Below, in pieces: positions 11,744 to 62,554 of a DNA stretch of 64,000 nt. Every line of letters starts with the position of its first letter. Within the stretch, counting starts at the first letter, position 1. Under the pieces are notes generated by a model, which was not told the origin of the DNA, made no database searches, and saw nothing but the letters and a program-made list of their open reading frames with translations. Origin of the DNA: Actinomycetes bacterium (GTDB lineage: Bacteria > Actinomycetota > Acidimicrobiia > Acidimicrobiales > Ilumatobacteraceae); assembly GCA_025359865.1 (NCBI GenBank), contig JANYDH010000103.1:1-64000 (forward strand), read 5' to 3'. A program made the translations under genes and the position numbers.

Positions 11744-12070
11744 CCGGGAGTTGCCTTCGCTACGACGGCGAGCCATTTCGGCCATGTCGGCGAGTTGGGC
11801 GCGGTGGGCGTCGAGGTCAAGGTTCGGGTCGCCGCGCCACACGATTTCCACGTCGCCCGTCGCTGAGACAGCAACCGCTACCGACGAACCGATCACCGGG
11901 AGCATCGGCCCGAGTGCGATTCCAACGAGATGTATCCGGCGCGTCGGCTCGCCCGGATCCGCAAGGTCGAGGACCACGTCGTACCGTTGCGCAGCGGCAG
12001 AACGCGAGCCGTGGTTGACGTTCGACGAGAGAACCGTGGCACGGGTTTCCCCTGCTGTTGACGTCGGCAT
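11714..12070 (-). CDS. Hypothetical protein, 118 residues
   Basis: Not a family I recognise. The ATG at 12070 is chosen because GAGG sits about 9 nt upstream; an upstream ATG at 12133 would add a His/Asp-rich stretch encoded by a 17-bp tandem repeat and is less likely. The centre (YDVVLDLADPGEP, RRIHLVGIALGPMLPVIGSSVAVAV) looks like a small beta-rich domain, and the tail is charged and helical. No clear signal peptide or transmembrane anchor. It overlaps the LuxR-type gene end and is divergent from the ABC exporter operon, with which it could share a control region. Confidence 0.55.
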   Translation of the reverse strand: MPTSTAGETRATVLSSNVNHGSRSAAAQRYDVVLDLADPGEPTRRIHLVGIALGPMLPVIGSSVAVAVSATGDVEIVWRGDPNLDLDAHRAQLADMAEMARRRSEGNSRSTGDGVGRK

Positions 12071-12084
12071 CGATCGCTGGTCCT

Positions 12085-12118
12085 CATGGTCGTGGTGCTG
12101 GCATGGTCGTGGTGCTGG
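12085..12118. repeat. 17-bp perfect tandem duplication
   Basis: CATGGTCGTGGTGCTGG occurs twice head to tail just upstream of the 118-residue gene start and within the divergent intergenic region before the ABC exporter. It could be replication slippage or paired regulator sites; the sequence alone does not distinguish these. Confidence 0.7.
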
Positions 12119-12155
12119 CTCGTTGCAACCCAACCACGCCGCGCCGCATCGGTCG

Positions 12156-12172
12156 TGAGTAAGAGTTACTCA
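12156..12172. promoter_or_regulatory. Candidate operator before the ABC exporter
   Basis: Perfect inverted repeat TGAGTAA-GAG-TTACTCA in the divergent intergenic region, about 60 bp before the ABC exporter start. The shape fits a dimeric MarR/TetR-type binding site; the regulator is not identified and the role is inference. Confidence 0.4.
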
Positions 12173-12230
12173 TCGTCGGGACGGCGAAAATGACCCTCAC
12201 GTTTGACGATGGATAGGCGAGGATGCACCG

Positions 12231-13970
12231 ATGGACACCCGGTCACCGGCACGTTGGCGCGCCCTCATGGCGCTCGTGCGGCCCGACGCAGCGCGTTGGG
12301 CCGCACTCAGCGCGCTCTTAGCCGCCAGCTCTGCGTTGTCGTTGGCTGGACCGCTGGTGATCCGCCAGGTGGTCGACCGAGCGAGAACAGGTGCCACCAC
12401 GGCGGCGCTCGCCAATCTCGCCGTGGTCTATCTCCTGATCGCGGCGGCCACAGGGGTGATCGCCGTGATCGTAGCGTGGGCGGCCACTATCACCGCATGG
12501 CGTACCACGAACCAGATCCGGCTCAGGATGACACGCCATGTGCTCGGCCTCGACCATGAGTTCCATCGCCGCCATACCCCTGGTGAACTCATCCAACGCG
12601 TCGACGGCGATGTCACCTCGGTGTCGGACTTCCTCGGTCGGGTCGTCCCCCGCGCTGTCGGCGCGGGCTTCCTCGTGGTCGGGATGCTCATCGTGTTGGC
12701 AGTGCTGGACCTCGGGCTGGCGCTCGGTGCGTTTGCCTACGTACTGCTCGCTGTCGCCGTAGTCGTTCGTGGCAGACACCGTGCGGTCACCGAGGCATCC
12801 GACGAGATGGGTTCCTACGCCAGACTGTATGGCGGCATCGAGGAACGACTCACCGCCGCCGAAGACCTACGTGCCAACGGAGCCGGCGCCCATGCGCTCA
12901 ACCGCTTCGTGGAAGAGAGCGGACAAGCACTGCACAGCTCCGTACGCCGCGAACGGGCCTTTCTGCGAATGTGGTGGGCCGTGCAAGGGTCGGTAGCCGC
13001 CGGGGTGTCGGTGAGCCTGGCTGTCGGCGCCGCACTCGTCGCAGCCGACGCGATCTCGGTCGGAACTGCGTTCTTGCTCTTACAGTACGTCTTGCTGTTG
13101 GGTCGACCGCTGGAAGACATCGTGCAGCAACTCGAAACGGTGCAGAAGGCGAACGGCGCGATGGTGCGCGTGATCGACCTCCTCGGAGTGCAGCCCGCAA
13201 TCGCCGACCACGGCACCATCGCGCCACCATCTGGTCCGCTGTCTGTCAACTTCGACCACATTTGGTTCTCCTACGGCGACGACCACCCGGTGCTGCAGAA
13301 CATCGACCTGCACATCGCTGCTGGTCGCTCCGTCGGCATCGTCGGGCGCACCGGGAGCGGCAAGACCACGGCCTCACGGCTGATCCTTCGACTGGTCGAG
13401 GCGACCGAGGGGACCCTCTCGCTCGGAGGCGTCCCCATTGCCGATATTCCTCTCGACGAACTTCGCCGACGTGTGGCGTTGATCCCGCAAGAGGTCGAAC
13501 TGTTCGCGGGAACGGTCCGCGACAACGTCACCTTGTTCGACGACGAACCGTCCGACGACGAGGTCGCCGCGGCGCTACGGCTTGCCGGTCTGAGCACACT
13601 CGTCGATGGCGGCATCCACCGTCCACTTGGGCCCGGCGGGGCCGGCGTCTCGGCAGGCGAGGCCCAACTATTGGCGCTCGCCAGAGTATGGCTACGGCGT
13701 CCCGACCTGGTCGTGCTGGACGAAGCGACGGCACGGATCGACCCAGGCACAGAAGCGCTACTCGATCATGCGGTTGCTCAACTGATGCGCGGACGAACCA
13801 CGCTGATCATCGCCCACAGGCTGTCCACGCTGCGTCGAGTCGACGAGATCATCGTGTTCGACCACGGTCGCGTCGTCGAACAGGGCGACCGAGACGAACT
13901 CGCCGGTAGTGATGGCAGCCGGTTCCATCGCCTGCTGGAACTCGCGCTCGACGAGGACGTCGCATCATGA
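12231..13970 (+). CDS. ABC exporter half-transporter, subunit 1 (degenerate signature)
   Basis: Type IV (ABCB-like) exporter half of 579 residues: six-helix membrane domain (about 20-310), then a nucleotide-binding domain. Walker A is GRTGSGKTT (about 373), Walker B VVLDEATARID keeps the catalytic Glu, and the H-loop is IIAHRLS. The signature is VSAGEAQ instead of LSGGQ. The partner gene overlaps by ATGA and has the complementary defect, which is the known design of heterodimeric exporters such as TM287/288 and BmrCD: Walker motifs here pair with the partner's good signature to make the one catalytic site. The substrate is unknown; drug or lipid export is typical of the family. Confidence 0.9.
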   Translation: MDTRSPARWRALMALVRPDAARWAALSALLAASSALSLAGPLVIRQVVDRARTGATTAALANLAVVYLLIAAATGVIAVIVAWAATITAWRTTNQIRLRMTRHVLGLDHEFHRRHTPGELIQRVDGDVTSVSDFLGRVVPRAVGAGFLVVGMLIVLAVLDLGLALGAFAYVLLAVAVVVRGRHRAVTEASDEMGSYARLYGGIEERLTAAEDLRANGAGAHALNRFVEESGQALHSSVRRERAFLRMWWAVQGSVAAGVSVSLAVGAALVAADAISVGTAFLLLQYVLLLGRPLEDIVQQLETVQKANGAMVRVIDLLGVQPAIADHGTIAPPSGPLSVNFDHIWFSYGDDHPVLQNIDLHIAAGRSVGIVGRTGSGKTTASRLILRLVEATEGTLSLGGVPIADIPLDELRRRVALIPQEVELFAGTVRDNVTLFDDEPSDDEVAAALRLAGLSTLVDGGIHRPLGPGGAGVSAGEAQLLALARVWLRRPDLVVLDEATARIDPGTEALLDHAVAQLMRGRTTLIIAHRLSTLRRVDEIIVFDHGRVVEQGDRDELAGSDGSRFHRLLELALDEDVAS

Positions 13971-15667
13971 ACGTGTGGCGGCTTGCATGGCGCGTCTCGC
14001 AGCACGAACCGCGCTCGTTCTGGGCCGGTTGGTCGGGATTCGTGCTGTTCTTCACATTTCCCGTGGTGAACGGGTGGCTGGTCGGTCGCGGCTTCGATGC
14101 CTTGTCGCACGGACAGCCCGGCGAGGCCTACCGGTATGCGTTGGTCATGGTCGTCTGTGAGGTGCTGCGGATGGCCACCATCCACTTCGGCGCGATTCAG
14201 TGGACTCAGGCCTGGGTGCACATGCAGACCCTGCTTCGCGCCAACTTGTTGGCCGCACAACTGGCCAGCGGCGGGCCTGAGGCCGGGCAACCGGTCGGTT
14301 CGGCCGGCGCCGCGCTCACCCACTTCCGAGACGATGCCGAGGACGTCGCAATGTTCGTCGATGGGCTGGTCGATGTGTCGGCAGGTCTCGTGTTCACCGT
14401 GCTTGCGGCATTCGTGTTGGGCAGCATCGACACCGGTGCTACGGCCGTCTTGGCGTTGCCGCTCGGCGGCGTCGCCCTAGCGACGCGCGCACTGGATTCA
14501 CGGATCAAGCGCTACCGCAGCGCTGATCGCGCCGCCACTGCTGCGGTCAGCGGCCTACTTGGAGACGTGATGGCAGCAGCGACAACCATCAAGGTGAACG
14601 CTGCCATCGAGCCAATCATGCTGCGGATGAACGGATTGGTCGATCACCGGCGTCATACCGCCGTGCGCGACCGGGTACTCGACGACGGAGTGCAGGCGTT
14701 CAGTCAGGGGGCTGCCGATGTGGGGTTGGGCCTCGTCCTGCTGGTCAGTGCGAGCGCGATCGCCGCTGGCTCGTTCGGCGTGGGCGATCTCGCCGTGTTC
14801 ACCGCATACATGGGGTGGCTGTCATTCCTGCCACGCATGGTCGGGCGCGCGCTCGCCCGCCGCAAGCAGGCCGGTGTGGCGTTCGAGCGGATGTCGGGGC
14901 TCGTCGCCGATGAGCAGGTGGCCAACACCGTCACCGCACGGTCGTTACCGATCAGTCCGCGCCAACAACTCGCCATGCAGGGTGCCACACCTCCGGAACG
15001 GATCCTGGTGCCACGAGTGCCGCTTCGACGACTGACGGTGCGGTCGCTATCGGCCCGGTTCCCCAGCGGGGCCGGCATCGAAAGCATCTCGTTCGTTGTG
15101 GAACGCGGCAGTTTCACCGTCGTCACCGGACCCATAGCCGCCGGCAAGACCACGCTGCTGCGGGCCTTGCTGGGGCTGGCGCATCAGGCCGAGAACTCCG
15201 GTGAGGTGTTATGGAACGACACCGTGGTGCTCGACCGTGCCGCATTCCTGGTACCGCCCAACGCAGCGTTCCTGCCACAGGTTCCACAGTTGATCTCCGA
15301 CTCGGTGCACGACAACATTGCGCTCGGCTCTGCTCGTCTCGAGCAGGTGTTGCGATCACTCGACCTGGCCGTCGTCGGTGCCGACATCGACGACATGCCC
15401 GATGGCATCGACACCATGATCGGACCGCGTGGCCTACGCCTCTCGGGTGGTCAACGACAACGGGTTGCCACGGCGCGGGCGTTGGTCCATGAGCCGGAAC
15501 TCCTGATTCTGGACGACGTATCGAGCGCGCTTGACGTGGAGACCGAACTCGCGTTGTGGACAGGGCTCGCCGACGCGGGAATGACCGTGATCGCAGTCTC
15601 GCACCGAGCGATTGCGTTCGACCGAGCCGACCAGGTACTCGAACTCGTTGCCGGCCGCTTGCGTTAG
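13967..15667 (+). CDS. ABC exporter half-transporter, subunit 2 (degenerate catalytic Glu)
   Basis: Second half of the heterodimeric exporter, 566 residues, translationally coupled (ATGA) to subunit 1. Membrane helices occupy about 15-300. Walker A is GPIAAGKTT (about 388) and the signature is canonical LSGGQRQR (about 492). Walker B is LLILDDVSSALD, with Asp replacing the catalytic Glu, and the switch is AVSHRA. The nucleotide site formed by this chain's Walker motifs with subunit 1's VSAGEAQ should therefore be the non-hydrolysing site. Reciprocal defects in both chains indicate an obligate heterodimer rather than decay. Confidence 0.9.
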   Translation: MNVWRLAWRVSQHEPRSFWAGWSGFVLFFTFPVVNGWLVGRGFDALSHGQPGEAYRYALVMVVCEVLRMATIHFGAIQWTQAWVHMQTLLRANLLAAQLASGGPEAGQPVGSAGAALTHFRDDAEDVAMFVDGLVDVSAGLVFTVLAAFVLGSIDTGATAVLALPLGGVALATRALDSRIKRYRSADRAATAAVSGLLGDVMAAATTIKVNAAIEPIMLRMNGLVDHRRHTAVRDRVLDDGVQAFSQGAADVGLGLVLLVSASAIAAGSFGVGDLAVFTAYMGWLSFLPRMVGRALARRKQAGVAFERMSGLVADEQVANTVTARSLPISPRQQLAMQGATPPERILVPRVPLRRLTVRSLSARFPSGAGIESISFVVERGSFTVVTGPIAAGKTTLLRALLGLAHQAENSGEVLWNDTVVLDRAAFLVPPNAAFLPQVPQLISDSVHDNIALGSARLEQVLRSLDLAVVGADIDDMPDGIDTMIGPRGLRLSGGQRQRVATARALVHEPELLILDDVSSALDVETELALWTGLADAGMTVIAVSHRAIAFDRADQVLELVAGRLR

Positions 15668-41149: not shown

Positions 41150-41515
41150 ATGAGTCAACTCAACGTCATAGGCGAAGCTCTCCAGCCATGTTCATACGAC
41201 CCGATGACCGGATACTTCCGCACGGGGTGCTGCGAGAACCACGGTGACGACCCGGGGATGCACGTGGTGTGCGTGGTACTCACCGATGAGTTCCTCGTGT
41301 TCAGTAAGCAGGCCGGCAACGATCTCAGCACCCCGATGCCGCAGTACGGATTCGCCGGCTTGAACCATGGTGACCAATGGTGCCTGTGCGCCTCACGCTG
41401 GCAGGAGGCGTTCGAGGCCGGTTCGGCACCTCGCGTCGTGCTCGCCGCCACCCATCTTTCGGCTCTGGAGTACAGCTCGCTCGCAGATCTTCGGTCTCAT
41501 GCCATCGACGGCTGA
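41150..41515 (+). CDS. DUF2237 family protein
   Basis: Conserved protein of 121 residues. Family marks: NVIGEALQPCSYDPMTGYFR, GCCENHGDDPGMHVVC, GNDLSTPMPQYGFAGL and GDQWCLCASRWQEAF. Several conserved Cys residues suggest metal or redox binding, but the function of DUF2237 is unknown. TAGGGGG lies just before the ATG. It overlaps the next gene by 17 bp. Confidence 0.92.
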   Translation: MSQLNVIGEALQPCSYDPMTGYFRTGCCENHGDDPGMHVVCVVLTDEFLVFSKQAGNDLSTPMPQYGFAGLNHGDQWCLCASRWQEAFEAGSAPRVVLAATHLSALEYSSLADLRSHAIDG

Positions 41516-42191
41516 TCCAGTCGATCACTCGGGCAGCGACAGCGCCACGGCACTGCTCAAGCCGCTCTTGCGCGGTTGGTCGCACGTCGTGTCGTTCTGC
41601 ATCGTTGCCGTGCTGGGGACGACGATGATCGTGACCACTGATGCATCGCCGGTTCAGCGCCTGTGGCTGGTCGTCTACTTGGCGGGCACGCTGAGCATGC
41701 TCGGCGTGTCGGCGCTGTATCACCGGCTGAACTGGACCGACACTGCGAGGGCTCGCATGCGACGCCTCGATCACTCGACGATCTTTCTTGCGATTACCGG
41801 CGCCTACATGCCGGTGGTCACGACTGTGGTGACTGGTTGGCAGCGCCCGACGATCCTGATCGTCGCATGGGTCGGCTCCATCATCGGAATCGCCTTGCAA
41901 TGGCTACCCGTCCACGTACCACGGGCGGCGTTCACCTCCGTCTACGTGCTGGTCGGATGGTGCTCCTCGCTTGCGTTCTCGCAACTCATCGACGGCCTCG
42001 GTCCGGGCGGATTCGCCCTGCTCCTAAGCGGAGGCATCGCCTACACGATCGGTGCCGTGGTCTACGCCGCAAAATGGCCTGATCCTTGGCCGCAGGTGTT
42101 CGGGTATCACGAGGTGTTCCACGCCCTCACCGTGATCGGGGCCGGATGCCATCTCGCGATGATTGCCTTCGCAGTGATCCCGAAGTTCTGA
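41499..42191 (+). CDS. Hemolysin III / PAQR family membrane protein
   Basis: Seven-transmembrane protein of 230 residues. Motifs: LGVSALYHRLNW, ARMRRLDHSTIFLAITGAYMP and GYHEVFHALTVIGAGCHL, the Ser/His/Asp/His set that binds zinc in the YqfA/HlyIII/PAQR family. Members are thought to act as ceramidase-like hydrolases or in membrane lipid homeostasis. The start at 41499 lies within the end of the DUF2237 gene, so they are co-translated. Confidence 0.9.
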   Translation: MPSTADPVDHSGSDSATALLKPLLRGWSHVVSFCIVAVLGTTMIVTTDASPVQRLWLVVYLAGTLSMLGVSALYHRLNWTDTARARMRRLDHSTIFLAITGAYMPVVTTVVTGWQRPTILIVAWVGSIIGIALQWLPVHVPRAAFTSVYVLVGWCSSLAFSQLIDGLGPGGFALLLSGGIAYTIGAVVYAAKWPDPWPQVFGYHEVFHALTVIGAGCHLAMIAFAVIPKF

Positions 42192-42257: not shown

Positions 42258-45200
42258 TCAGCGCCTCAGGTTCGAAGGCACCTCGCGGATCGCGCGTTCG
42301 AACACCTCGAGCACACAGGCTGCATCACCGGCCGTGAGCGGCATCGGGCCACGCAACTTGATCACGTTGTGCAGTGGGCCATCAGTGCCGACGAGCACTC
42401 CGGCCAAGCGCATCCGTTGCGCGATCCACGCAGCCTCGGCGGCGGCGGGTTCCAACGTGTCACGATCACGCACCAGCTCGACACCAAGAAACAATCCGGA
42501 ACCGCGCACGTCGCCGATCAGTTCATAGCGGGATTGCAGGTCACGTAGGCCTGGGATCAGCACCCCATTGCCGACCGCCAGCGCATGGGCCTGCAACTTC
42601 TCGTCGAGCACCACCTGCAGTGTCGCCAACGCCGCCGCGCATGCCGCGGTACTCCCACCGAACGTGCTGAAGAACTCCATGCCCGTCTCGAAACTGTCGG
42701 CGAGCTCCGCGGTGGTGACCACCGCCCCCATCGGGTACCCGTTGGCGATCGGCTTGCCCAGCACGACGATGTCGGGGCAGACGTCGTGCTGCTGGAAGCC
42801 CCAGAAGTGAGTGCCAAGCCGCCCGAAACCTGTCTGCACCTCGTCGGCGATACACACCCCACCGGCCTCACGGACGAGTGAGTACACCCCTGAGAGATAG
42901 CCGTCGGGGAGCAGGATCTGCCCGCCAACGCTGGGACATGTCTCCGCGATGTATGCACCGATCCGCCGGCCCCGTTCAGCCGCTTCGTCGATCACGACGC
43001 CGACCTGCGCAGCGAACCATTGACCGGCCGTTGCCGGGTTGGCACGTGTGCGATACATGTCGGGAATCGGCGAGGTGTGCACCCATTCGGGAGCGCCCAT
43101 ACCACCAGGACCATCGTGTTTGTAGGGGCTGATGTCGATGAGAGTGGTGGAATGGCCGTGATAGGCGGCATCCATCACGACCACGTCTCTTCGACCGGTG
43201 TGCGCCCTCGCAAGCCGCAACGCGAGTTCGTTGGCCTCGCTGCCCGATGCTGTGAAGAAGCACACCTCAAGTGGTGCCGGTAACTGAGCGGTGAGCAGAT
43301 CAGCGTAGGTCAGCAACTGGTCCTGTAGGTAGCGGGTGTTGGTGTTCAACACCGAAAGTTGGTCGCCGACGGCGCGCACGACGCGTGGGTGCGAGTGCCC
43401 CACGTGGGCAACGTTGTTGTACGCGTCGATGTATGCGCGGCCGGTCTCATCGAACAGGTACTGCATCCGCCCGCGGCGGATCTGCAACGGATGCGTTCCA
43501 TACGAGACACTCACGTTGCTGCCGATTCGGCGGTGCCGTCGTTCAGCAAGCGATTCGGTCGACGGCCTTGCGGGAAAAACGTGTTGTGGCACACCGACCA
43601 GCAGGTTGGGGTCGGGGCTGATGCTCCGCCAGACGGCGCGTTGACTCGCCAGCGCAACGCCGTTGAAGTTGAGCGGCACGTCGAGCATGTCGGTGATCAA
43701 CTGCATGTGCACGTGCGGCCACCAGTCGCCGTTCACCGGCGGCGCACCGATGCTGCCGATCTGTTGACCGGCGAACACCGCCGTACCCGGTTGCAGACCG
43801 ACGAGCGGCTCACGCGAGAGGTGGCCGTACAGCGTGTAGAGCAGCAGCGACGGCTCACCATCCACCGGCAACTCGTGACGAAGCACGATCATCGGGCCGT
43901 AATCGTGACGCATTTCGATCTCGCCGATGCCATGCACGACTCCGTCGAGCGGGGCAAAGATCGGCGTTCCGGCTTGCATCGAGATGTCGAGCGCAACATG
44001 GATGGTGCGTTCCTCGTGAAGGATGCTCGACGACTCGGCGTCGTAGATCACTCGCGGCTCGTCGTAGCCGCCGACACCGATCTGCACGCCGGCCTCATCG
44101 AGCACGTCTTGCACCCGTTGTGCGAACGCCGCCGTGGAGTTGCGGGCGAGGTCGTTCGACACGAGCGGGCTCCCCACACTCATGTCGACGGCGACTACCG
44201 GGGTGGTGGACAGATCATGACCAACGACATTGGCGATGCGATCACGGTGTTGCTCGAGCCAGCGCCGCACCGCGGCGCTGTGAGGTACCGGCTCGAGCCC
44301 GCACGCATCGCGGTATACGTACTGAGCGAGACGTGGATGGATTGCGGCGAGCTTCGGTAACGTGTCTGCAATCAGGCCCTGGCTGATGCCCAGGTACTCG
44401 TGACCAGGTCGTTCCGACTGCTGCTTGGCGGACAGGCACACGCTCATCGCCAACCGCATGCACACCAGACTGTGCAGCACGGCGAGTTCATCGTCGGTGA
44501 TGGCCAGCACCCGGTGGTAGCCGCGCACGGCGTGCGCCATCGCCTGCACCGGATCAGGCTGTCCGAGCCCGGCATACGCCATCGCGACGGCGAGGTCGTT
44601 CACAGTATGACTGAACACCATGTCGCCGAAGTCGACGATGCCGGTCACCACCTCGGCCGCTGCATCGACGAGCACGTTGTGATCGTTCGTATCGCCATGG
44701 ATCACGCTGCGCCGCAGACCGGCCAGCATGGGGACTGCTGTGGTGCGGTGATACTCGGCCAACCCGTGGATCAGTGCACGCAACTCGACGTCGTCGACAC
44801 GTGCCCCATGTTGGTCGATGACCGAGAGGGCGTTGCCGAGGTCCCAATGGAAGTCGCGATGCAACGCTTCGTGATCGAAGGTCATGAGCGCAGTGTCGAT
44901 GCCGGCCACTGCTGCCCCGAGCGACTGCAGCATCAACCCGGTGCGCAGCGGGGTAGTGCCGAGCGTCATCCCAGGGAGCAGCGTGATGAGCCGGACAAGA
45001 TGTCCCTGCGTCGACCCGATCTCGCCGCCCGCGACTAGCGGCATCGGCATTGGACAGATCTGCATCGAGGCGAGGTGATGCATCACCGCCTGTTCTGCCT
45101 CCAACACCGAACGATCCTCACCCGGATTGGCGATCTTGAGGACGTACTCGGCACCGCCCGATTTCGTGATCCGCACGTTCTGATCACGCTCACTCGGAAG

Positions 45201-45293
45201 TGCCGACGGAACGCCGTCGATCCCGAAGAGCTCACGACACATCGTCGCTGTCTCGTCGAGCGTGAACCGAGGCGCGCTTTCGACCGGCGTCAC
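42258..45293 (-). CDS. Kinase - M23 peptidase-like - class III aminotransferase fusion
   Basis: Trifunctional chain of 1011 residues from GTG 45293. An APH/choline-kinase-type domain (about 1-330) has VIHGDTNDHNVLV (about 196) and IVDFGDM (about 218). An M23-like fold (about 410-545) has HVALD and HVHMQ zinc ligands. A class III PLP domain (about 575-1011) has the cofactor Lys in LGKPIANGYPMG (about 843). Kinase plus PLP phospho-lyase is the logic of hydroxylysine or ethanolamine breakdown: phosphorylate the alcohol, then eliminate phosphate and ammonia to an aldehyde (human HYKK plus PHYKPL/ETNPPL). Similar fusions are known in bacteria; the M23 part is unexplained. Last gene of a three-gene operon. 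Confidence 0.88.
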   Translation of the reverse strand: MTPVESAPRFTLDETATMCRELFGIDGVPSALPSERDQNVRITKSGGAEYVLKIANPGEDRSVLEAEQAVMHHLASMQICPMPMPLVAGGEIGSTQGHLVRLITLLPGMTLGTTPLRTGLMLQSLGAAVAGIDTALMTFDHEALHRDFHWDLGNALSVIDQHGARVDDVELRALIHGLAEYHRTTAVPMLAGLRRSVIHGDTNDHNVLVDAAAEVVTGIVDFGDMVFSHTVNDLAVAMAYAGLGQPDPVQAMAHAVRGYHRVLAITDDELAVLHSLVCMRLAMSVCLSAKQQSERPGHEYLGISQGLIADTLPKLAAIHPRLAQYVYRDACGLEPVPHSAAVRRWLEQHRDRIANVVGHDLSTTPVVAVDMSVGSPLVSNDLARNSTAAFAQRVQDVLDEAGVQIGVGGYDEPRVIYDAESSSILHEERTIHVALDISMQAGTPIFAPLDGVVHGIGEIEMRHDYGPMIVLRHELPVDGEPSLLLYTLYGHLSREPLVGLQPGTAVFAGQQIGSIGAPPVNGDWWPHVHMQLITDMLDVPLNFNGVALASQRAVWRSISPDPNLLVGVPQHVFPARPSTESLAERRHRRIGSNVSVSYGTHPLQIRRGRMQYLFDETGRAYIDAYNNVAHVGHSHPRVVRAVGDQLSVLNTNTRYLQDQLLTYADLLTAQLPAPLEVCFFTASGSEANELALRLARAHTGRRDVVVMDAAYHGHSTTLIDISPYKHDGPGGMGAPEWVHTSPIPDMYRTRANPATAGQWFAAQVGVVIDEAAERGRRIGAYIAETCPSVGGQILLPDGYLSGVYSLVREAGGVCIADEVQTGFGRLGTHFWGFQQHDVCPDIVVLGKPIANGYPMGAVVTTAELADSFETGMEFFSTFGGSTAACAAALATLQVVLDEKLQAHALAVGNGVLIPGLRDLQSRYELIGDVRGSGLFLGVELVRDRDTLEPAAAEAAWIAQRMRLAGVLVGTDGPLHNVIKLRGPMPLTAGDAACVLEVFERAIREVPSNLRR

Positions 45294-45318
45294 TGCACAA
45301 CGTCCCGCTGCATGGCTG

Positions 45319-46440
45319 TCAGTTCGCGGCTGTGCAGCAACGTTGGCGGAGCCTGCTCTCGACGTCTTCACGGTTGACGTATCCGCCACACAACCGGCGC
45401 ACACCGGTGTAGGCGAACCGACCGTGCAGCACCCGCCAGTTGTCGAACAGCATTGCTTCGCCCGGTGCGAGCACATGGCGCCACTGCATGACAGCATCGT
45501 TGGCGATGGTGTCGAACGTGCGCAGCGCGTTGTAGAACGCGAGCATCTCGTGCTCGTCCAGCAGGAAAGGAGCGCGGTCGTAGTCGTTGAACGAGACCTG
45601 CACCAGTTGGCCGGTGTGGTCGTGACGGAACACCGGCCGCGCCGCCATGAGGTGCGAACCGTCACCGATGTACTGACCTGGCACGCTCACAGCCGACAGG
45701 GTGGCAAAGTGCTCTGGCGCCTCGACCCGCATCCGGCTAGCAATATGAAAAGCATCAACCATCGTGCTCGCGCCACCGGTGCCGTCGAACTGCAGGCAGT
45801 GGAGTAACTGCACCCCAGGCGCGTCGTGCGAGTACGTACCATCGGTGTGCGGGCGAAGCTCGAGATTCGTGTACGCCGTATCGGCCTTGGTGAGGTCGGC
45901 TGTGAACTCCCACATCCCGCCGAAGATCGTTTCGCGCACGTACCCGATTCTGCGCAGCAGCGCCTCGGTCGCCGCAGCGGTAGGCGGCGTGTCGACGGCG
46001 AGGCAGAAGCCGAACTCGGCCGTCTTGGTGAGCCACTCCGCAACCCCATCGTCACTGTTCATCACGTGATCGAACGCCACCGTTGGCAGGTTGCCGTCGA
46101 TGGACGCCGCATCCCACAGCGTGATCTCTGTCTCGACCGCTGCCCGCGGTGCCTGCGGCATCCGGTAGGCCTCCAGGAACCGCACCGGCAGCACAGAAGC
46201 AGCACTGGCATCGTTCCATGTGACGGTCACCGCGTCGTCGGCGACCCCGGCGGTCGTACCGGCAAGACCCTCCGGTAGCGAGGCGGTGAACAACTGCCGT
46301 TGCCCGGTGATGGGATGCAACGTGAGGTCATCGTGGGCATGGTCACGTATCCAAATCCACGGGTAGCGCGTCACGACTCCATCGTCCCATGTCACTTCCA
46401 ACGAAACCTTCTGAAGCGAAACCGACGCGATGGTCCTCAT
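45319..46440 (-). CDS. TauD/GBBH-like Fe(II)/2-oxoglutarate dioxygenase
   Basis: Dioxygenase of 373 residues. The N-terminal DUF971-like domain (about 1-95; WIRDHAHDDLTLHP) marks the gamma-butyrobetaine / trimethyllysine hydroxylase branch. The catalytic domain has HTD in LRPHTDGTYSHD (about 195) and the distal His and Arg in DNWRVLHGRFAY and GVRRLCGGYVNRED. It hydroxylates an unactivated carbon, usually of a quaternary or primary amine (gamma-butyrobetaine, trimethyllysine, trimethylaminoethylphosphonate). Between a PLP decarboxylase (12 bp upstream) and the kinase-lyase fusion, it likely supplies the hydroxyl that the kinase phosphorylates. Substrate is inference. Confidence 0.9.
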   Translation of the reverse strand: MRTIASVSLQKVSLEVTWDDGVVTRYPWIWIRDHAHDDLTLHPITGQRQLFTASLPEGLAGTTAGVADDAVTVTWNDASAASVLPVRFLEAYRMPQAPRAAVETEITLWDAASIDGNLPTVAFDHVMNSDDGVAEWLTKTAEFGFCLAVDTPPTAAATEALLRRIGYVRETIFGGMWEFTADLTKADTAYTNLELRPHTDGTYSHDAPGVQLLHCLQFDGTGGASTMVDAFHIASRMRVEAPEHFATLSAVSVPGQYIGDGSHLMAARPVFRHDHTGQLVQVSFNDYDRAPFLLDEHEMLAFYNALRTFDTIANDAVMQWRHVLAPGEAMLFDNWRVLHGRFAYTGVRRLCGGYVNREDVESRLRQRCCTAAN

Positions 46441-46451
46441 ACGACAAGATC

Positions 46452-47891
46452 CTACGGCTGCGGCGGCGCACACCGAACCAGCCGAAAGGCAGCGAGGATC
46501 GCCGCCACCGAGAGCGTGACGTCGGCGGTTGTGGTGGCATGGTTGCTGACGGAGATGCGCATGACCGCCTGGTTCCGCCAGATCGATCCGCCGAGCCAGC
46601 ACGTGCCGTCGTTCTGTACCGCGGCGATGACTGCGCGCGTCAACGCGTCATCGTCATCGTCATCGTCGCCGTCGTTGTTGCCGGCAGTCTGCAGAAAGCG
46701 CACGAGCACCTGGTTGAGCACCACGTCGTTGAGCACCACCACGCCTGGCTCGGCAGCAAGGAGCTCGGCGAAGTGGCGGGCGTGGGCACAACACCGCTCG
46801 ACGATCTCGGCGATGCCCTCACGACCGAGCGATGCGATCGCGGCGTAGACCGGCACACCGCGAGCGCGACGCGAGAACTCGGGATTCCAGTCGACCGGAT
46901 CCCGATTGGTACCCGGCGCCGCTTGCGTCAGGTATGCAGCGGTGACCGTCATCGCAGCCCGGTGGGATTCGTGATGACGACAGATGATGACCCCACAGTC
47001 GTACGGGACGTTGAGCCACTTGTGGGCATCGGTCGACCACGAATCGGCTTGCTCGAGGCCGATCATGTCGCCTCGCGTCTCGGCCACCGCAGCCCACAAC
47101 CCAATCGCACCATCGACGTGCAGCCATGCACCGTGATCGTGGGCAACAGCCGCGAGTTCGCCGACCGGATCGAGGGCGCCGGTGTTGACATTGCCTGTCT
47201 GGCAGCACACGATCGTGGGACCACCGGGGCCATCAGACAGGACGCGTTCCAGGTCGGCAGACAGCATCGCACCATTGGCATCGACGGCGACACGCTCGAT
47301 GCAACGTGAACCGAGGCCGAGCAGCCGCGCCGCACGAGGGATCGTGACGTGAACCTCATCACCTACGACGAGCCGTATCGGCGGCGAGCCTCCGAGACCA
47401 TTGGTCTCGACATCCCAGCCAACTGCAGCGAGCACATGATGGCGTGCGGCCGCGAGCGCTGTGGTGTTGGCCATCTGGCCGCCGGTGACGAACGCGAACG
47501 ACGACTGCGACGGTAAGCCGAGCAGATCGATGATCCAACGGCCCGCGACTTCCTCGACGATCGCCGTGGCAGGGCTTGGCGAGAACAATGCCGTGTTCTG
47601 ATCCCAAGCGGTCACGAGCCAGTCGGCACCGAGCGCAGCGGGTACCGAGCCTCCGATGACAAAGCCGAAGAACCGGCCCGAACCCATCCCCATCAAACCA
47701 CCGCCCTCGACCGCGTCGCCGAGCCTGGTCAGCACGGTGCCCGCGTCGGTCGGGTGCTGCGGGGTCGGACCACCGAGAGACTCCCGAAGCTGCGTCGCTG
47801 TAGCCGTCGGACCAACCGGGCGATCACCCAAGCCTGAGCGATATGCAATTGCCCGTTCGGTAACTGCGCGCAGCACATCTGCCTCTTCCAT
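46452..47891 (-). CDS. PLP-dependent (group II) amino acid decarboxylase
   Basis: Decarboxylase of 479 residues related to aromatic-amino-acid/glutamate decarboxylases. PLP Lys in STDAHKWLNVPYDCG (about 285), GNVNTGALDP and HDHGAWLHVDGAIG with the cofactor Asp, and the substrate-flap region near the C-terminus. A GAC/GAT microsatellite (46647-46680) codes a seven-Asp run in the small domain. As first gene of the operon it would turn an amino acid into the amine handled by the downstream dioxygenase and kinase-lyase. The amino acid is not known. Confidence 0.9.
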   Translation of the reverse strand: MEEADVLRAVTERAIAYRSGLGDRPVGPTATATQLRESLGGPTPQHPTDAGTVLTRLGDAVEGGGLMGMGSGRFFGFVIGGSVPAALGADWLVTAWDQNTALFSPSPATAIVEEVAGRWIIDLLGLPSQSSFAFVTGGQMANTTALAAARHHVLAAVGWDVETNGLGGSPPIRLVVGDEVHVTIPRAARLLGLGSRCIERVAVDANGAMLSADLERVLSDGPGGPTIVCCQTGNVNTGALDPVGELAAVAHDHGAWLHVDGAIGLWAAVAETRGDMIGLEQADSWSTDAHKWLNVPYDCGVIICRHHESHRAAMTVTAAYLTQAAPGTNRDPVDWNPEFSRRARGVPVYAAIASLGREGIAEIVERCCAHARHFAELLAAEPGVVVLNDVVLNQVLVRFLQTAGNNDGDDDDDDDALTRAVIAAVQNDGTCWLGGSIWRNQAVMRISVSNHATTTADVTLSVAAILAAFRLVRCAPPQP

Positions 47892-47914
47892 CGCGACAAC
47901 GTAGCGGACCACCG

Positions 47915-47961
47915 AGCTTTGGTCGTGAGATGTCGCTGAGCCGCATCTCATGACCAAAGCT
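47915..47961. repeat. Dispersed palindrome, copy A
   Basis: 18-bp arms (AGCTTTGGTCGTGAGATG and its reverse complement with one mismatch) around an 11-nt loop. The 26 bases at 47915-47940 are identical to 62506-62531. Here it separates divergent genes, 24 bp before the decarboxylase start, and contains an ATG that is probably not used. Confidence 0.8.
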
Positions 47962-47979
47962 CCACGGGGAAGTGCCGGA

Positions 47980-48274: not shown

Positions 48275-48342
48275 CAACGACGCAGCGTTTGGTAGGTCGA
48301 GCCCCCTGAGGGGGGCCGCACCTACCAAACGCTGCGTCGTTG
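48275..48342. terminator. Long perfect hairpin between convergent genes
   Basis: 23-bp perfect inverted repeat (CAACGACGCAGCGTTTGGTAGGT and complement are the arm sequences, longer than usual terminators), with an inner GCCCCC/GGGGGC stem. No U-run follows on either side, so it may be a repetitive palindrome that also ends transcription of the convergent genes at 48237 and 48400. Confidence 0.5.
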
Positions 48343-48399: not shown

Positions 48400-49497
48400 T
48401 CAGGAGCGGGCGACGCGGATCTCTTCGAGCAGGGCGGCTGCAAGCCTGGCACGGTCGACCATCGTGTCGACGAGCACGTACTCGTGATCGGCGTGGGCAC
48501 CGCCGCCCACCGCACCGAGGCCATCGAGGGTGGCAACGCCAACCGCTGCGGTGAAGTTGCCGTCGCTGCCGCCTCCAACGGCCATACCGCTCACAGCGGG
48601 CAGTCCGGCCCGGGCCGCAGCGCTCTGGGCCAGCGGGAACAGCGTGGCTGACGACGACTCGTGCATGGGTGGCCGATTGATGCCACCACGCACGTCGACC
48701 CGAGCCTCGGCGAGTGACGGTTGCAGCGAGGCCATCAACGCCTCGATCCGCTCCTTCTCTCCCGGTTCGACCACGCGGACATCGATCTTGACCCGCGTCT
48801 CGGCTGGCACCACGTTGTCGGCGGTACCGGCCGAGGCCATTGTCGGCGTCACGGTCGTTCCGGTGGCTGGATCGCCGAACGTTGCGACGCGGCCGATCAG
48901 TTCAGCTGCCGCAACGAGGGAGTTGACACCCTTTTCCGGCTCGAGCCCCGCGTGCGAGGCTCGGCCGTGTACGACCACTTCGAACGTGCCGGTGCCTTTG
49001 CGGGCTGTCTTCAGCGCACCGCCGTCGGCGCTCGGCTCGAACACCAAGACGGCACCGCACGCAAGCGCACGCTGTTCGATGTAGTCACGCGATGCACCCG
49101 AGCCAACCTCTTCGTCGGCGGTGATCAGGATCTCGATACCCGAGCGATCAGCGAGCGACGCGACCGCATGAATGGCCTGCACGATGCCGGCCTTCATGTC
49201 GAACACGCCGGGCCCGGTAGCGCGACCCTCGCTGATCGTGAATGGCCGAGCAGCAAGGGCTCCCACCGGAAAGACGGTGTCGTGATGGCCGACCATCAGC
49301 ACCGAGGGCGTACCACCGCCCTGCCAGTGCACATGGGGACCCGCCGGGCTCTCGACGAGCACGGGGCGTGAGCCCAACCGTCGCTCCATCACGTCGGCGA
49401 TCGCATCCGCCGAACGGGTCAAGGCCACCACGTCATACGAGGGCGACTCGATGTTCACGAGTACAGCAAGATCGTCCAACAGATCGGCGAGTTCCAT
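48400..49497 (-). CDS. M20 family metallopeptidase (glutamate carboxypeptidase-like)
   Basis: Zinc peptidase of 365 residues. Metal and catalytic motifs: VGHHDTVFPVG (His and Asp), GPGVFDMKAG (bridging Asp), ITADEEVGS (catalytic and ligand Glu), FEPSADG and a C-terminal DADHEYVL-type His in HADHEYVLVD. The lid domain is at about 175-285. Closest in pattern to carboxypeptidase G2-type enzymes that remove C-terminal glutamate or cleave N-acyl amino acids. No signal peptide, so cytosolic. It is convergent with the small gene and divergent from the lipoprotein hydrolase. Confidence 0.9.
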   Translation of the reverse strand: MELADLLDDLAVLVNIESPSYDVVALTRSADAIADVMERRLGSRPVLVESPAGPHVHWQGGGTPSVLMVGHHDTVFPVGALAARPFTISEGRATGPGVFDMKAGIVQAIHAVASLADRSGIEILITADEEVGSGASRDYIEQRALACGAVLVFEPSADGGALKTARKGTGTFEVVVHGRASHAGLEPEKGVNSLVAAAELIGRVATFGDPATGTTVTPTMASAGTADNVVPAETRVKIDVRVVEPGEKERIEALMASLQPSLAEARVDVRGGINRPPMHESSSATLFPLAQSAAARAGLPAVSGMAVGGGSDGNFTAAVGVATLDGLGAVGGGAHADHEYVLVDTMVDRARLAAALLEEIRVARS

Positions 49498-62503: not shown

Positions 62504-62554
62504 CCAGCTTTGGTCGTGAGATGTCGCTGAGCGACATCTCAGAACCAAAGCTGG
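62504..62554. terminator. Dispersed palindrome, copy B, between convergent genes
   Basis: 25-bp arms with two mismatches around a single central base; contains the same 26-bp core as 47915-47940. It lies 28 bp past the acyl-CoA dehydrogenase stop and 11 bp before the P450 stop, so it would end transcription in both directions, although it has no U-run. Confidence 0.65.

What the first reader, a model, noticed from the sequence alone, without database searches (positions are those of the whole stretch)
42258..47891. Three-gene operon: decarboxylase, dioxygenase, kinase-M23-aminotransferase fusion
Seen: three minus-strand genes 11-25 bp apart encode a PLP decarboxylase, a DUF971-TauD/GBBH-type dioxygenase and a 1011-residue chain joining an APH-type kinase, an M23 peptidase-like domain with both zinc-ligand motifs, and a class III PLP domain. 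Known: hydroxylysine and phosphoethanolamine breakdown use the same kinase and phospho-lyase families (HYKK, PHYKPL, ETNPPL). Inference: the operon makes an amine by decarboxylation, hydroxylates it, phosphorylates the new hydroxyl and eliminates phosphate and ammonia to give an aldehyde. The M23 domain inside a metabolic fusion is unexplained and may shape or tether the kinase and lyase.
Basis: partly seen in the sequence, partly recalled or inferred. Interest (0 to 1): 0.75.

Follow-up and report, generated by a model that had tools for sequence, protein, structure and literature searches.

The report
Trimethyllysine-like hydroxylase with kinase–phospho-lyase operon
Three tightly packed bacterial genes look like a breakdown route for a methylated amino acid, built from a hydroxylase resembling the first enzyme of carnitine synthesis, a decarboxylase and a known but unstudied three-domain kinase–peptidase-like–lyase protein; among the genomes searched, the trio was seen only here.

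Summary
In detail: three minus-strand genes, 11 and 25 bp apart, encode a group II decarboxylase, a GBBH-like dioxygenase and a 1011-residue APH kinase–M23–class III PLP protein. The tri-domain architecture is already catalogued (NCBIfam PRK06148, 'hypothetical protein'; this protein is 3.7 bits under its cut-off) and occurs in many bacterial phyla and Thorarchaeota. Its PLP domain is of phospho-lyase type (46% identical to human ETNPPL). The M23 site is intact in 80 of 81 aligned fusions, while four of four sampled same-genus genomes also carry a kinase–lyase fusion without M23, so M23 probably adds a third activity. The dioxygenase carries the trimethyllysine-hydroxylase signature (9 of 10 published residues, including the discriminating Asp) and passes NCBIfam's trimethyllysine dioxygenase cut-off. 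This suggests a pathway: trimethyllysine, 3-hydroxylation, decarboxylation to a vicinal amino alcohol, phosphorylation, elimination to 5-trimethylammoniopentanal. Against it, the trio was found in this genome alone: no dioxygenase or decarboxylase homologue lies in the sequence held around 80 fusion homologues, and the fusion was probably acquired separately. The pathway rests on adjacency, residues and chemistry; no activity is shown. New variant of a known kind.

The parts
42258..45293 (-). Tri-domain fusion: APH-type kinase - M23 - class III PLP domain of phospho-lyase type (1011 aa, GTG start)
44289..45272 (-). Kinase domain (about residues 8-335), with H199-x-D201-x4-N206 and D221-F-G-D224
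   Evidence: Pfam APH 99.4 bits; D201, N206, D221, D224 in 81 of 81 aligned fusions
43659..44009 (-). M23 metallopeptidase-fold domain (about residues 429-545): H432, D436, H491, H527, H529
   Evidence: Pfam; conserved in 81, 81, 80, 81, 81 of 81 aligned fusions; model of residues 340-580 with pLDDT 93.1; Z 15.0 to lysostaphin catalytic domain
42279..43553 (-). PLP domain of phospho-lyase type (about residues 581-1005), PLP lysine K847 in a GKP motif
   Evidence: VIA-align Z 41.2, 46% identity to 6tor human ETNPPL
45319..46440 (-). Fe(II)/2-oxoglutarate dioxygenase of trimethyllysine-hydroxylase type (373 aa)
   Evidence: TIGR02410 285.9 bits vs cut-off 268.3; signature residues
45880..45882 (-). 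Codon of Asp187, aligned with BBOX Asn191, which the review equates with TMLH Asp231, thought to set substrate choice
46452..47891 (-). Group II PLP decarboxylase (479 aa); H181, D260 and K291 lie in the motifs recalled as the PLP site
   Evidence: Pfam Pyridoxal_deC 139.3 bits; motif positions; no equivalog cut-off met
47914..47962 (.). Palindrome 22 bp upstream of the first gene; one of a genome-wide dispersed family
48275..48342 (.). 32-nt inverted repeat between the M20 peptidase gene and the operon; its arm was found nowhere else in the genome at up to 2 mismatches

Best explanation
A catabolic operon for N6,N6,N6-trimethyllysine (TML) or a very close analogue. Proposed steps. (1) The dioxygenase hydroxylates TML at C3, next to the amino-bearing carbon. 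(2) The group II decarboxylase removes the carboxylate, leaving 1-amino-2-hydroxy-5-(trimethylammonio)pentane, a terminal vicinal amino alcohol. Steps 1 and 2 may run in the other order, through trimethylcadaverine. (3) The fusion's kinase domain phosphorylates the hydroxyl. (4) The fusion's PLP domain eliminates phosphate and ammonia to give 5-trimethylammoniopentanal, which a dehydrogenase elsewhere would oxidise to delta-valerobetaine. The M23 domain is an intact zinc-hydrolase-type site; most likely it frees a blocked or peptidyl amine before step 3 or 4. Supported by computation: the architecture, the families, the phospho-lyase affiliation, the TML-hydroxylase signature and the M23 site. 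Inferred: substrate, order, coupling and the M23 role.
For: Same-strand genes 11 and 25 bp apart. PLP domain closest to phospho-lyases by sequence (418 and 291 bits against 175 for the next), ETNPPL also first by fold (Z 41.2, 46% identity). Dioxygenase passes TIGR02410 at 285.9 against 268.3, as do 8 of 8 other rows of its main clade that were scanned; 7 of 7 other homologues scanned fail. Of the ten residues listed for TMLH in PMC7764450 (passages), nine are identical and one is Tyr to Phe, with the spacing from 217 to 244 exactly kept; the mapping goes through BBOX, as no TMLH sequence was at hand. The Asp is in 12 of 12 rows of the clade and 0 of 10 rows outside it, a split supported at 100/99. 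C3 hydroxylation plus decarboxylation yields the terminal amino alcohol that such a kinase/phospho-lyase pair needs (recalled: ETNPPL and PHYKPL act on terminal 1-amino-2-phospho compounds). In the family sample, own genome excluded, 3 of 4 fusion-bearing genomes hold the TML-type dioxygenase against 7 of 36 overall (p 0.018, not corrected for kinship).
Against: The trio is not co-conserved. There was no dioxygenase or decarboxylase homologue at E 1e-5 beside 80 fusion homologues plus 5 loci from relatives; only 47 of the 80 have at least 3 kb on both sides. Of 50 fusion-bearing genomes searched (of 80), 1 has a TML-type dioxygenase. In 18 loci of decarboxylase orthologues there is no fusion homologue and, apart from a distant GBBH-like gene in one, no dioxygenase. 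The fusion here groups with Gemmatimonadaceae, apart from those of its own family (FastTree), so the operon looks like a recent, perhaps loose, assembly. Decarboxylase substrate unknown. Among solved structures the PLP domain is nearest ETNPPL, so ethanolamine is the default substrate; the second solved phospholyase (5g4i) ranks only 11th by fold, behind GABA transaminases. Y217 of the cage is Phe here. The deep Asp-bearing rows G059 and G052 fail TIGR02410. The own genome also holds a gene of the threonine-aldolase/beta-eliminating-lyase type, so ordinary cleavage of 3-hydroxy-TML is possible.
Confidence: 0.33

Rival explanations
1. Ethanolamine module: the decarboxylase makes ethanolamine (or a similar amine) from serine, and the fusion turns it through O-phosphoethanolamine into acetaldehyde, phosphate and ammonia. 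The dioxygenase does something separate or N-demethylates an ethanolamine derivative.
For: PLP domain nearest to human ethanolamine-phosphate phospho-lyase. The fusion occurs in many phyla without the dioxygenase or the decarboxylase beside it and mostly without the TML-type dioxygenase in the genome (1 of 50), which suits a common substrate. A weak decarboxylase match to serine decarboxylase exists in PDB (E 4e-6).
Against: Serine decarboxylase is far from the best match (a DOPA decarboxylase, E 9e-33). It leaves the TML-type dioxygenase, 11 and 25 bp from its neighbours, unexplained. Lrp/AsnC regulators and amino acid transporter parts near some fusions hint at amino acid substrates.
Confidence: 0.25
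2. Canonical carnitine-type route: the dioxygenase makes 3-hydroxy-TML, which a threonine-aldolase-like enzyme encoded elsewhere cleaves; the two neighbouring genes serve other substrates and merely share a promoter.
For: The orthologue in G014 lies about 1.2 kb from a beta-eliminating-lyase-family (threonine-aldolase-like) gene and that in G024 is convergent with an aldehyde dehydrogenase whose best model, BADH, is below cut-off. The own genome has a 42% homologue of that aldolase-like gene, also Beta_elim_lyase. PMC11016064 (passages) reports that E. coli low-specificity threonine aldolase is active on 3-hydroxy-TML.
Against: Tight three-gene packing; decarboxylase plus kinase/phospho-lyase complement the hydroxylase chemically. 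Neighbours of the other orthologues vary. No aldolase equivalog is reached by the G014 gene (99.3 bits vs 230) or by the own-genome homologue (no NCBIfam match at 1e-20).
Confidence: 0.22
3. Hydroxylation of lysine or another amine, not TML, with the fusion acting as a hydroxylysine-type kinase/phospho-lyase.
For: Same kinase and lyase superfamilies as human HYKK and PHYKPL (recalled); Lrp/AsnC-type genes beside some fusions (6 of 126 neighbour ORFs).
Against: The dioxygenase keeps an aromatic cage like that for trimethylammonium (F173, W177, Y190) and the Asp.
Confidence: 0.1
4. Chance neighbours: three unrelated metabolic genes placed together by recent transfer.
For: The trio was found together nowhere else in what was searched; separate origin of the fusion; a dispersed palindrome lies 22 bp upstream of the first gene.
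Against: Gaps of 11 and 25 bp on one strand; a coherent chemical sequence.
Confidence: 0.1

Closest known systems
NCBIfam PRK06148 (NF004799) and PRK06149 (NF004800) proteins
   Same: Full-length match, residues 5-1005, 1124.3 bits to PRK06148 and 652.3 to PRK06149; relatives found with the same three domains in the same order
   Different: 3.7 bits under PRK06148's curated cut-off of 1128; that family is named 'hypothetical protein', with no function. Veiga-da-Cunha et al. 2012 (not held; recalled) already reported bacterial bi- and trifunctional kinase/AGXT2L-like proteins
Human ETNPPL / PHYKPL and Arthrobacter A1RDF1 phospho-lyases
   Same: PLP domain 46% (6tor, 364 residues aligned) and 38% (5g4i, 365) identical
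   Different: Those are stand-alone enzymes (recalled); here the domain is fused to a kinase and an M23 domain and set beside a TML-type hydroxylase. PHYKPL itself was not compared
Trimethyllysine hydroxylase (TMLH/TMLHE, TIGR02410)
   Same: Passes the equivalog cut-off; 9 of 10 key residues identical including the Asp231 equivalent
   Different: Bacterial; Tyr217 is Phe; placed with a decarboxylase and a phospho-lyase. Two papers (passages) state that carnitine biosynthesis is not observed in prokaryotes (PMC8085414) or that bacteria lack it (PMC11016064)
DavB/DavA route from trimethyllysine to delta-valerobetaine
   Same: Same start compound and same proposed end product (PMC11773067 passages)
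   Different: Monooxygenase plus amidase; no hydroxylation step, phosphorylation or phospho-lyase
M23 peptidases (lysostaphin, LytM, ShyA)
   Same: Fold (Z 15.0, rmsd 2.4, 132 residues aligned, 26% identity to 4qpb) and all five metal/catalytic residues (roles recalled)
   Different: Sits in the middle of a metabolic enzyme with no evident export signal at its N terminus (by eye) and no cell-wall domain

Membership tests
PRK06148 tri-domain family | Full-length profile match at the curated score | tested here: not met
   1124.3 bits against 1128, coverage 5-1005; missed by 3.7 bits
PRK06148 tri-domain family | Kinase, M23, class III PLP order with catalytic residues | tested here: met
ETNPPL/PHYKPL-type phospho-lyases | PLP domain nearer to phospho-lyases than to transaminases | tested here: met
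   By sequence 418 and 291 bits vs 175 for dialkylglycine decarboxylase. By fold 6tor is first (Z 41.2) but GABA transaminases (39.3) precede the second phospholyase 5g4i (36.7). No tree was built
ETNPPL/PHYKPL-type phospho-lyases | 1,2-elimination of phosphate and ammonia | not testable with these tools
   needs assay
Trimethyllysine hydroxylase (TIGR02410) | Curated equivalog score | tested here: met
   285.9 vs 268.3; 8 of 8 other main-clade rows scanned pass, 7 of 7 other homologues scanned fail, two of which (G059, G052) carry the Asp
Trimethyllysine hydroxylase (TIGR02410) | Residues for Fe, 2OG, trimethylammonium cage and substrate (H242, D244, H389, R391, R398, Y217, W221, Y234, D231, N334) | tested here: met
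   9 of 10 identical, Y217 is F; mapped through BBOX
Trimethyllysine hydroxylase (TIGR02410) | 3-hydroxylation of trimethyllysine | not testable with these tools
   needs assay
Group II PLP decarboxylases | Pyridoxal_deC profile and PLP lysine motif | tested here: met
   139.3 bits vs 27; HKW motif at 290
Group II PLP decarboxylases | A named substrate class (equivalog) | tested here: not met
   best model, L-2,4-diaminobutyrate decarboxylase, 130.8 vs cut-off 900
M23 metallopeptidases | HxxxD, second His, HxH and M23 fold | tested here: met
M23 metallopeptidases | Peptidase activity | not testable with these tools
   needs assay
Hydroxylysine kinase (HYKK) | Orthology to HYKK rather than to other APH kinases | not tested
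   No HYKK sequence was compared; PDB matches of the kinase part are weak (hygromycin-B 7''-O-kinase, E 8e-4)

The most novel reading that the evidence does not exclude
Some bacteria hold a true trimethyllysine hydroxylase, and in this genome it feeds a phospho-lyase route to the C5 trimethylammonio-aldehyde (delta-valerobetaine precursor) unlike both carnitine synthesis and DavB/DavA. The widespread kinase-M23-lyase protein is trifunctional: its M23 site is an intracellular zinc hydrolase that unblocks a peptidyl or N-acyl amino alcohol before phosphorylation and elimination.
Probability: 0.15. Interest if true: 0.75.

Novelty: new variant of a known kind. Interest (0 to 1): 0.48.

Why it matters
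If right, a hydroxylase known from eukaryotic carnitine synthesis also works in bacteria, with a second, unrelated way to turn trimethyllysine into a C5 onium compound of the class now linked to gut-microbe metabolites. It also turns an annotation puzzle into a question that purified proteins could settle: why a peptidase-type zinc site is kept inside a metabolic kinase–lyase found from Bacteroidota to Thorarchaeota.

Tried and rejected
Co-conserved operon: looked for P0002 and P0003 (tblastn E 1e-5) beside 80 named fusion loci and 5 loci from relatives; none (one search repeated P0002 at E 10: two chance-level hits). Class sample of 247 genomes: TML-type dioxygenase (E 1e-85) in 5, decarboxylase (E 1e-105) in 15, fusion (E 1e-130) in 2; only the own genome has all three. 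Phylum sample of 396 genomes: dioxygenase (E 1e-75) in 3, all in one family. In 72,556 plasmid records no dioxygenase match exceeded 33% identity (4 records).

A common neighbour of the fusion that would name its substrate: in clusters of neighbours the largest, generic ABC ATPases, reached 7 of 80 loci. A Pfam scan of 126 of 132 nearest-neighbour ORFs (six of the longest were left out) gave Lrp/AsnC-type HTH (6), type I phosphodiesterase (5) and aldo/keto reductase (4) at most. Annotated plasmid loci show Lrp/AsnC in 2 of 4, and amino acid or branched-chain amino acid transporter parts in 4 of 4. Suggestive, not decisive. Near 18 decarboxylase orthologues the commonest shared neighbours are an SDR (4 loci) and AMP-binding enzymes (3).

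M23 as a relic or tether: rejected as the main reading because the five residues are kept in 80 of 81 aligned fusions (L050 lacks His at 491), although one distant relative (L012) has lost three of five.

Literature: search listings showed me no paper on the tri-domain protein's function or on a bacterial trimethyllysine hydroxylase; only the top 5 to 20 titles of each were listed, and the library is open-access only. Passages were read of PMC8154272, PMC7764450, PMC11016064, PMC8085414 and PMC11773067. Veiga-da-Cunha et al. 2012 is not held and is cited from recall. A gene caller based on G+C by codon position was written for high-GC loci; it misjudges some starts and fails at lower G+C, for instance in L175. 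The dioxygenase tree kept the Asp column itself and has long branches (G051, G321_a, G320_a, BBOX), about which the tool warned.
Full report
WHAT IS THERE. An M20 peptidase gene lies 508 bp upstream (48400-49497) and a HlyIII-type gene converges downstream (41367-42191). G+C is 60-66% across the window in 2-kb steps, and the contig belongs to a 4.99-Mb, 219-contig genome.

THE FUSION. Pfam finds APH, Peptidase_M23 and Aminotran_3. NCBIfam PRK06148 matches end to end at 1124.3 bits against a cut-off of 1128, so the architecture is already catalogued, without a function. In 81 aligned fusions the kinase residues D201, N206, D221 and D224 and the PLP-domain residues D817, Q820 and K847 are invariant.

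THE PLP DOMAIN is of phospho-lyase type. By sequence the best solved structures are human ETNPPL (418 bits) and the Arthrobacter phospholyase (291), then a drop to 175. By fold ETNPPL leads with Z 41.2 at 46% identity, but GABA transaminases follow at 39.3 and the Arthrobacter enzyme is eleventh at 36.7, so fold alone separates them little. The substrate (ethanolamine, hydroxylysine or other) cannot be read from this.

THE M23 DOMAIN. A model of residues 340-580 has mean pLDDT 93.1 and superposes on lysostaphin's catalytic domain at Z 15.0, rmsd 2.4, 132 residues. H432, D436, H527 and H529 are kept in 81 of 81 fusions and H491 in 80 of 81. One distant relative in the same order has lost three of the five. 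In four of four same-genus genomes sampled there is also a shorter kinase-lyase fusion (766-771 residues in three; the fourth frame is called longer, 958) in which Pfam finds APH and Aminotran_3 but no M23. M23 is thus not needed to join kinase and lyase, and its conserved site argues for a third activity. The full-length model (pLDDT 85.3, pTM 0.70) came without coordinates, so how the sites face each other was not judged.

THE DIOXYGENASE. It passes NCBIfam's trimethyllysine dioxygenase equivalog (285.9 vs 268.3), not the gamma-butyrobetaine (249.7 vs 414.75) or TmpA (263.1 vs 400) models. A 2020 review (PMC7764450, passages) lists ten residues important in human TMLH and says substrate choice is thought to depend on Asp231, which is Asn191 in BBOX. 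Mapped through BBOX, since no TMLH sequence was at hand, nine are identical here (H198, D200, H339, R341, R348, W177, Y190, D187, N285) and Y217 is F173, with the same spacing from 217 to 244. In a 22-row tree the 12 Asp rows form one side of a 100/99 branch and the 10 others, including BBOX and TmpA, lack the Asp; the Asp column was part of the data and several outside branches are long. Scores for TIGR02410 agree in the main clade: P0002 and 8 of 8 others scanned pass (G024, G014, G004, G002, G018, G022, G201, G317), while the deep Asp rows G059 and G052 and five others fail. The clade is rare: 3 of 396 genomes of the phylum sample at E 1e-75, all in one family, and one alphaproteobacterium, Aestuariispira, among 50 fusion genomes. 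Two papers state that carnitine biosynthesis is not observed in prokaryotes or is lacking in bacteria (PMC8085414 and PMC11016064, passages), so a bacterial TML hydroxylase would be unexpected. Sequence can only suggest it.

THE DECARBOXYLASE is a group II enzyme with its PLP motifs, below every equivalog cut-off. Its substrate is unknown. Orthologues of 44-56% occur in part of the class (15 of 247 genomes at E 1e-105); around 18 of them no neighbour is shared by more than 4 loci. In one genome (G051) the orthologue lies beside a cluster with BKACE, a hydroxyacyl-CoA dehydrogenase and a distant GBBH-like gene, which resembles carnitine breakdown (family knowledge, recalled).

PUTTING IT TOGETHER. 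TML hydroxylated at C3 and decarboxylated is a terminal 1-amino-2-alcohol. That is the kind of compound on which the HYKK/ETNPPL/PHYKPL class of kinase and phospho-lyase acts (recalled). The product would be 5-trimethylammoniopentanal, one oxidation from delta-valerobetaine. Known gut bacteria reach delta-valerobetaine from TML by DavB and DavA (PMC11773067, passages). Each protein's family supports a step, and the gene packing supports their union. The order of the first two steps is open.

AGAINST IT. No dioxygenase or decarboxylase homologue lies in the sequence held beside 80 fusion homologues (47 with at least 3 kb on both sides), and 1 of 50 fusion genomes holds a TML-type dioxygenase anywhere (50 of the 80 loci were sent). 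The fusion here groups with Gemmatimonadaceae (support 100), while those of G001/G002 and G024 fall in a set with six Pseudomonadota (support 97) in a FastTree tree. The fusion therefore probably came into this family more than once, and its usual job cannot require the two neighbours. Within the family of 37 genomes sampled, fusion and TML-type dioxygenase overlap more than expected: 3 of 4 fusion genomes (one of them a partial fusion at a contig end) against 7 of 36, own genome excluded, hypergeometric p 0.018. This ignores shared ancestry: three of the four fusion genomes belong to the window's genus.

VERDICT. A real three-gene operon made of known families in a new combination, with one unexpectedly specific part (the TML-type dioxygenase) and one real puzzle (a conserved M23 site inside a kinase-lyase). 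Confidence in the full pathway is about one third; in the phospho-lyase type of the PLP domain about 0.85; in TML-like substrate use by the dioxygenase about 0.6.

Noticed in passing
47914-47962 and 62505-62553: A near-perfect palindrome (arms AGCTTTGGTCNTGAGATGNNGCT) occurs twice in the window; its arm matches 80 times in the genome (40 on each strand, up to 2 mismatches) against 0 for the reversed control, often at contig ends: a dispersed REP-like element.
   Followed up: partly
48275-48342: A 32-nt inverted repeat with a 4-nt loop between the M20 gene and the operon; its 21-nt arm was found nowhere else in the genome at up to 2 mismatches; function unknown.
   Followed up: partly
L215:1430-3736, L216:4784-7660, L217:5203-7503, L218:245-2560: Four same-genus genomes carry a kinase-phospho-lyase-type fusion without the M23 domain, close to genes that look like cytochromes P450 by eye.
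   Followed up: partly
L180:186-1334: The own genome has a second GBBH-like dioxygenase, 390.2 bits to the TmpA model (cut-off 400).
   Followed up: no
L062, L065, L068 (about 12000-14300): In three Thorarchaeota the fusion is followed by a phosphodiesterase-like gene and a gene that looks like threonine dehydratase, with an Lrp/AsnC-like gene near by (the names are by eye).
   Followed up: no
L175:4027-12252: A 3-hydroxyacyl-CoA dehydrogenase, BKACE, TauD/GBBH-like, homocysteine S-methyltransferase-like and SDR cluster lies divergent to a decarboxylase orthologue and an AMP-binding gene.
   Followed up: partly
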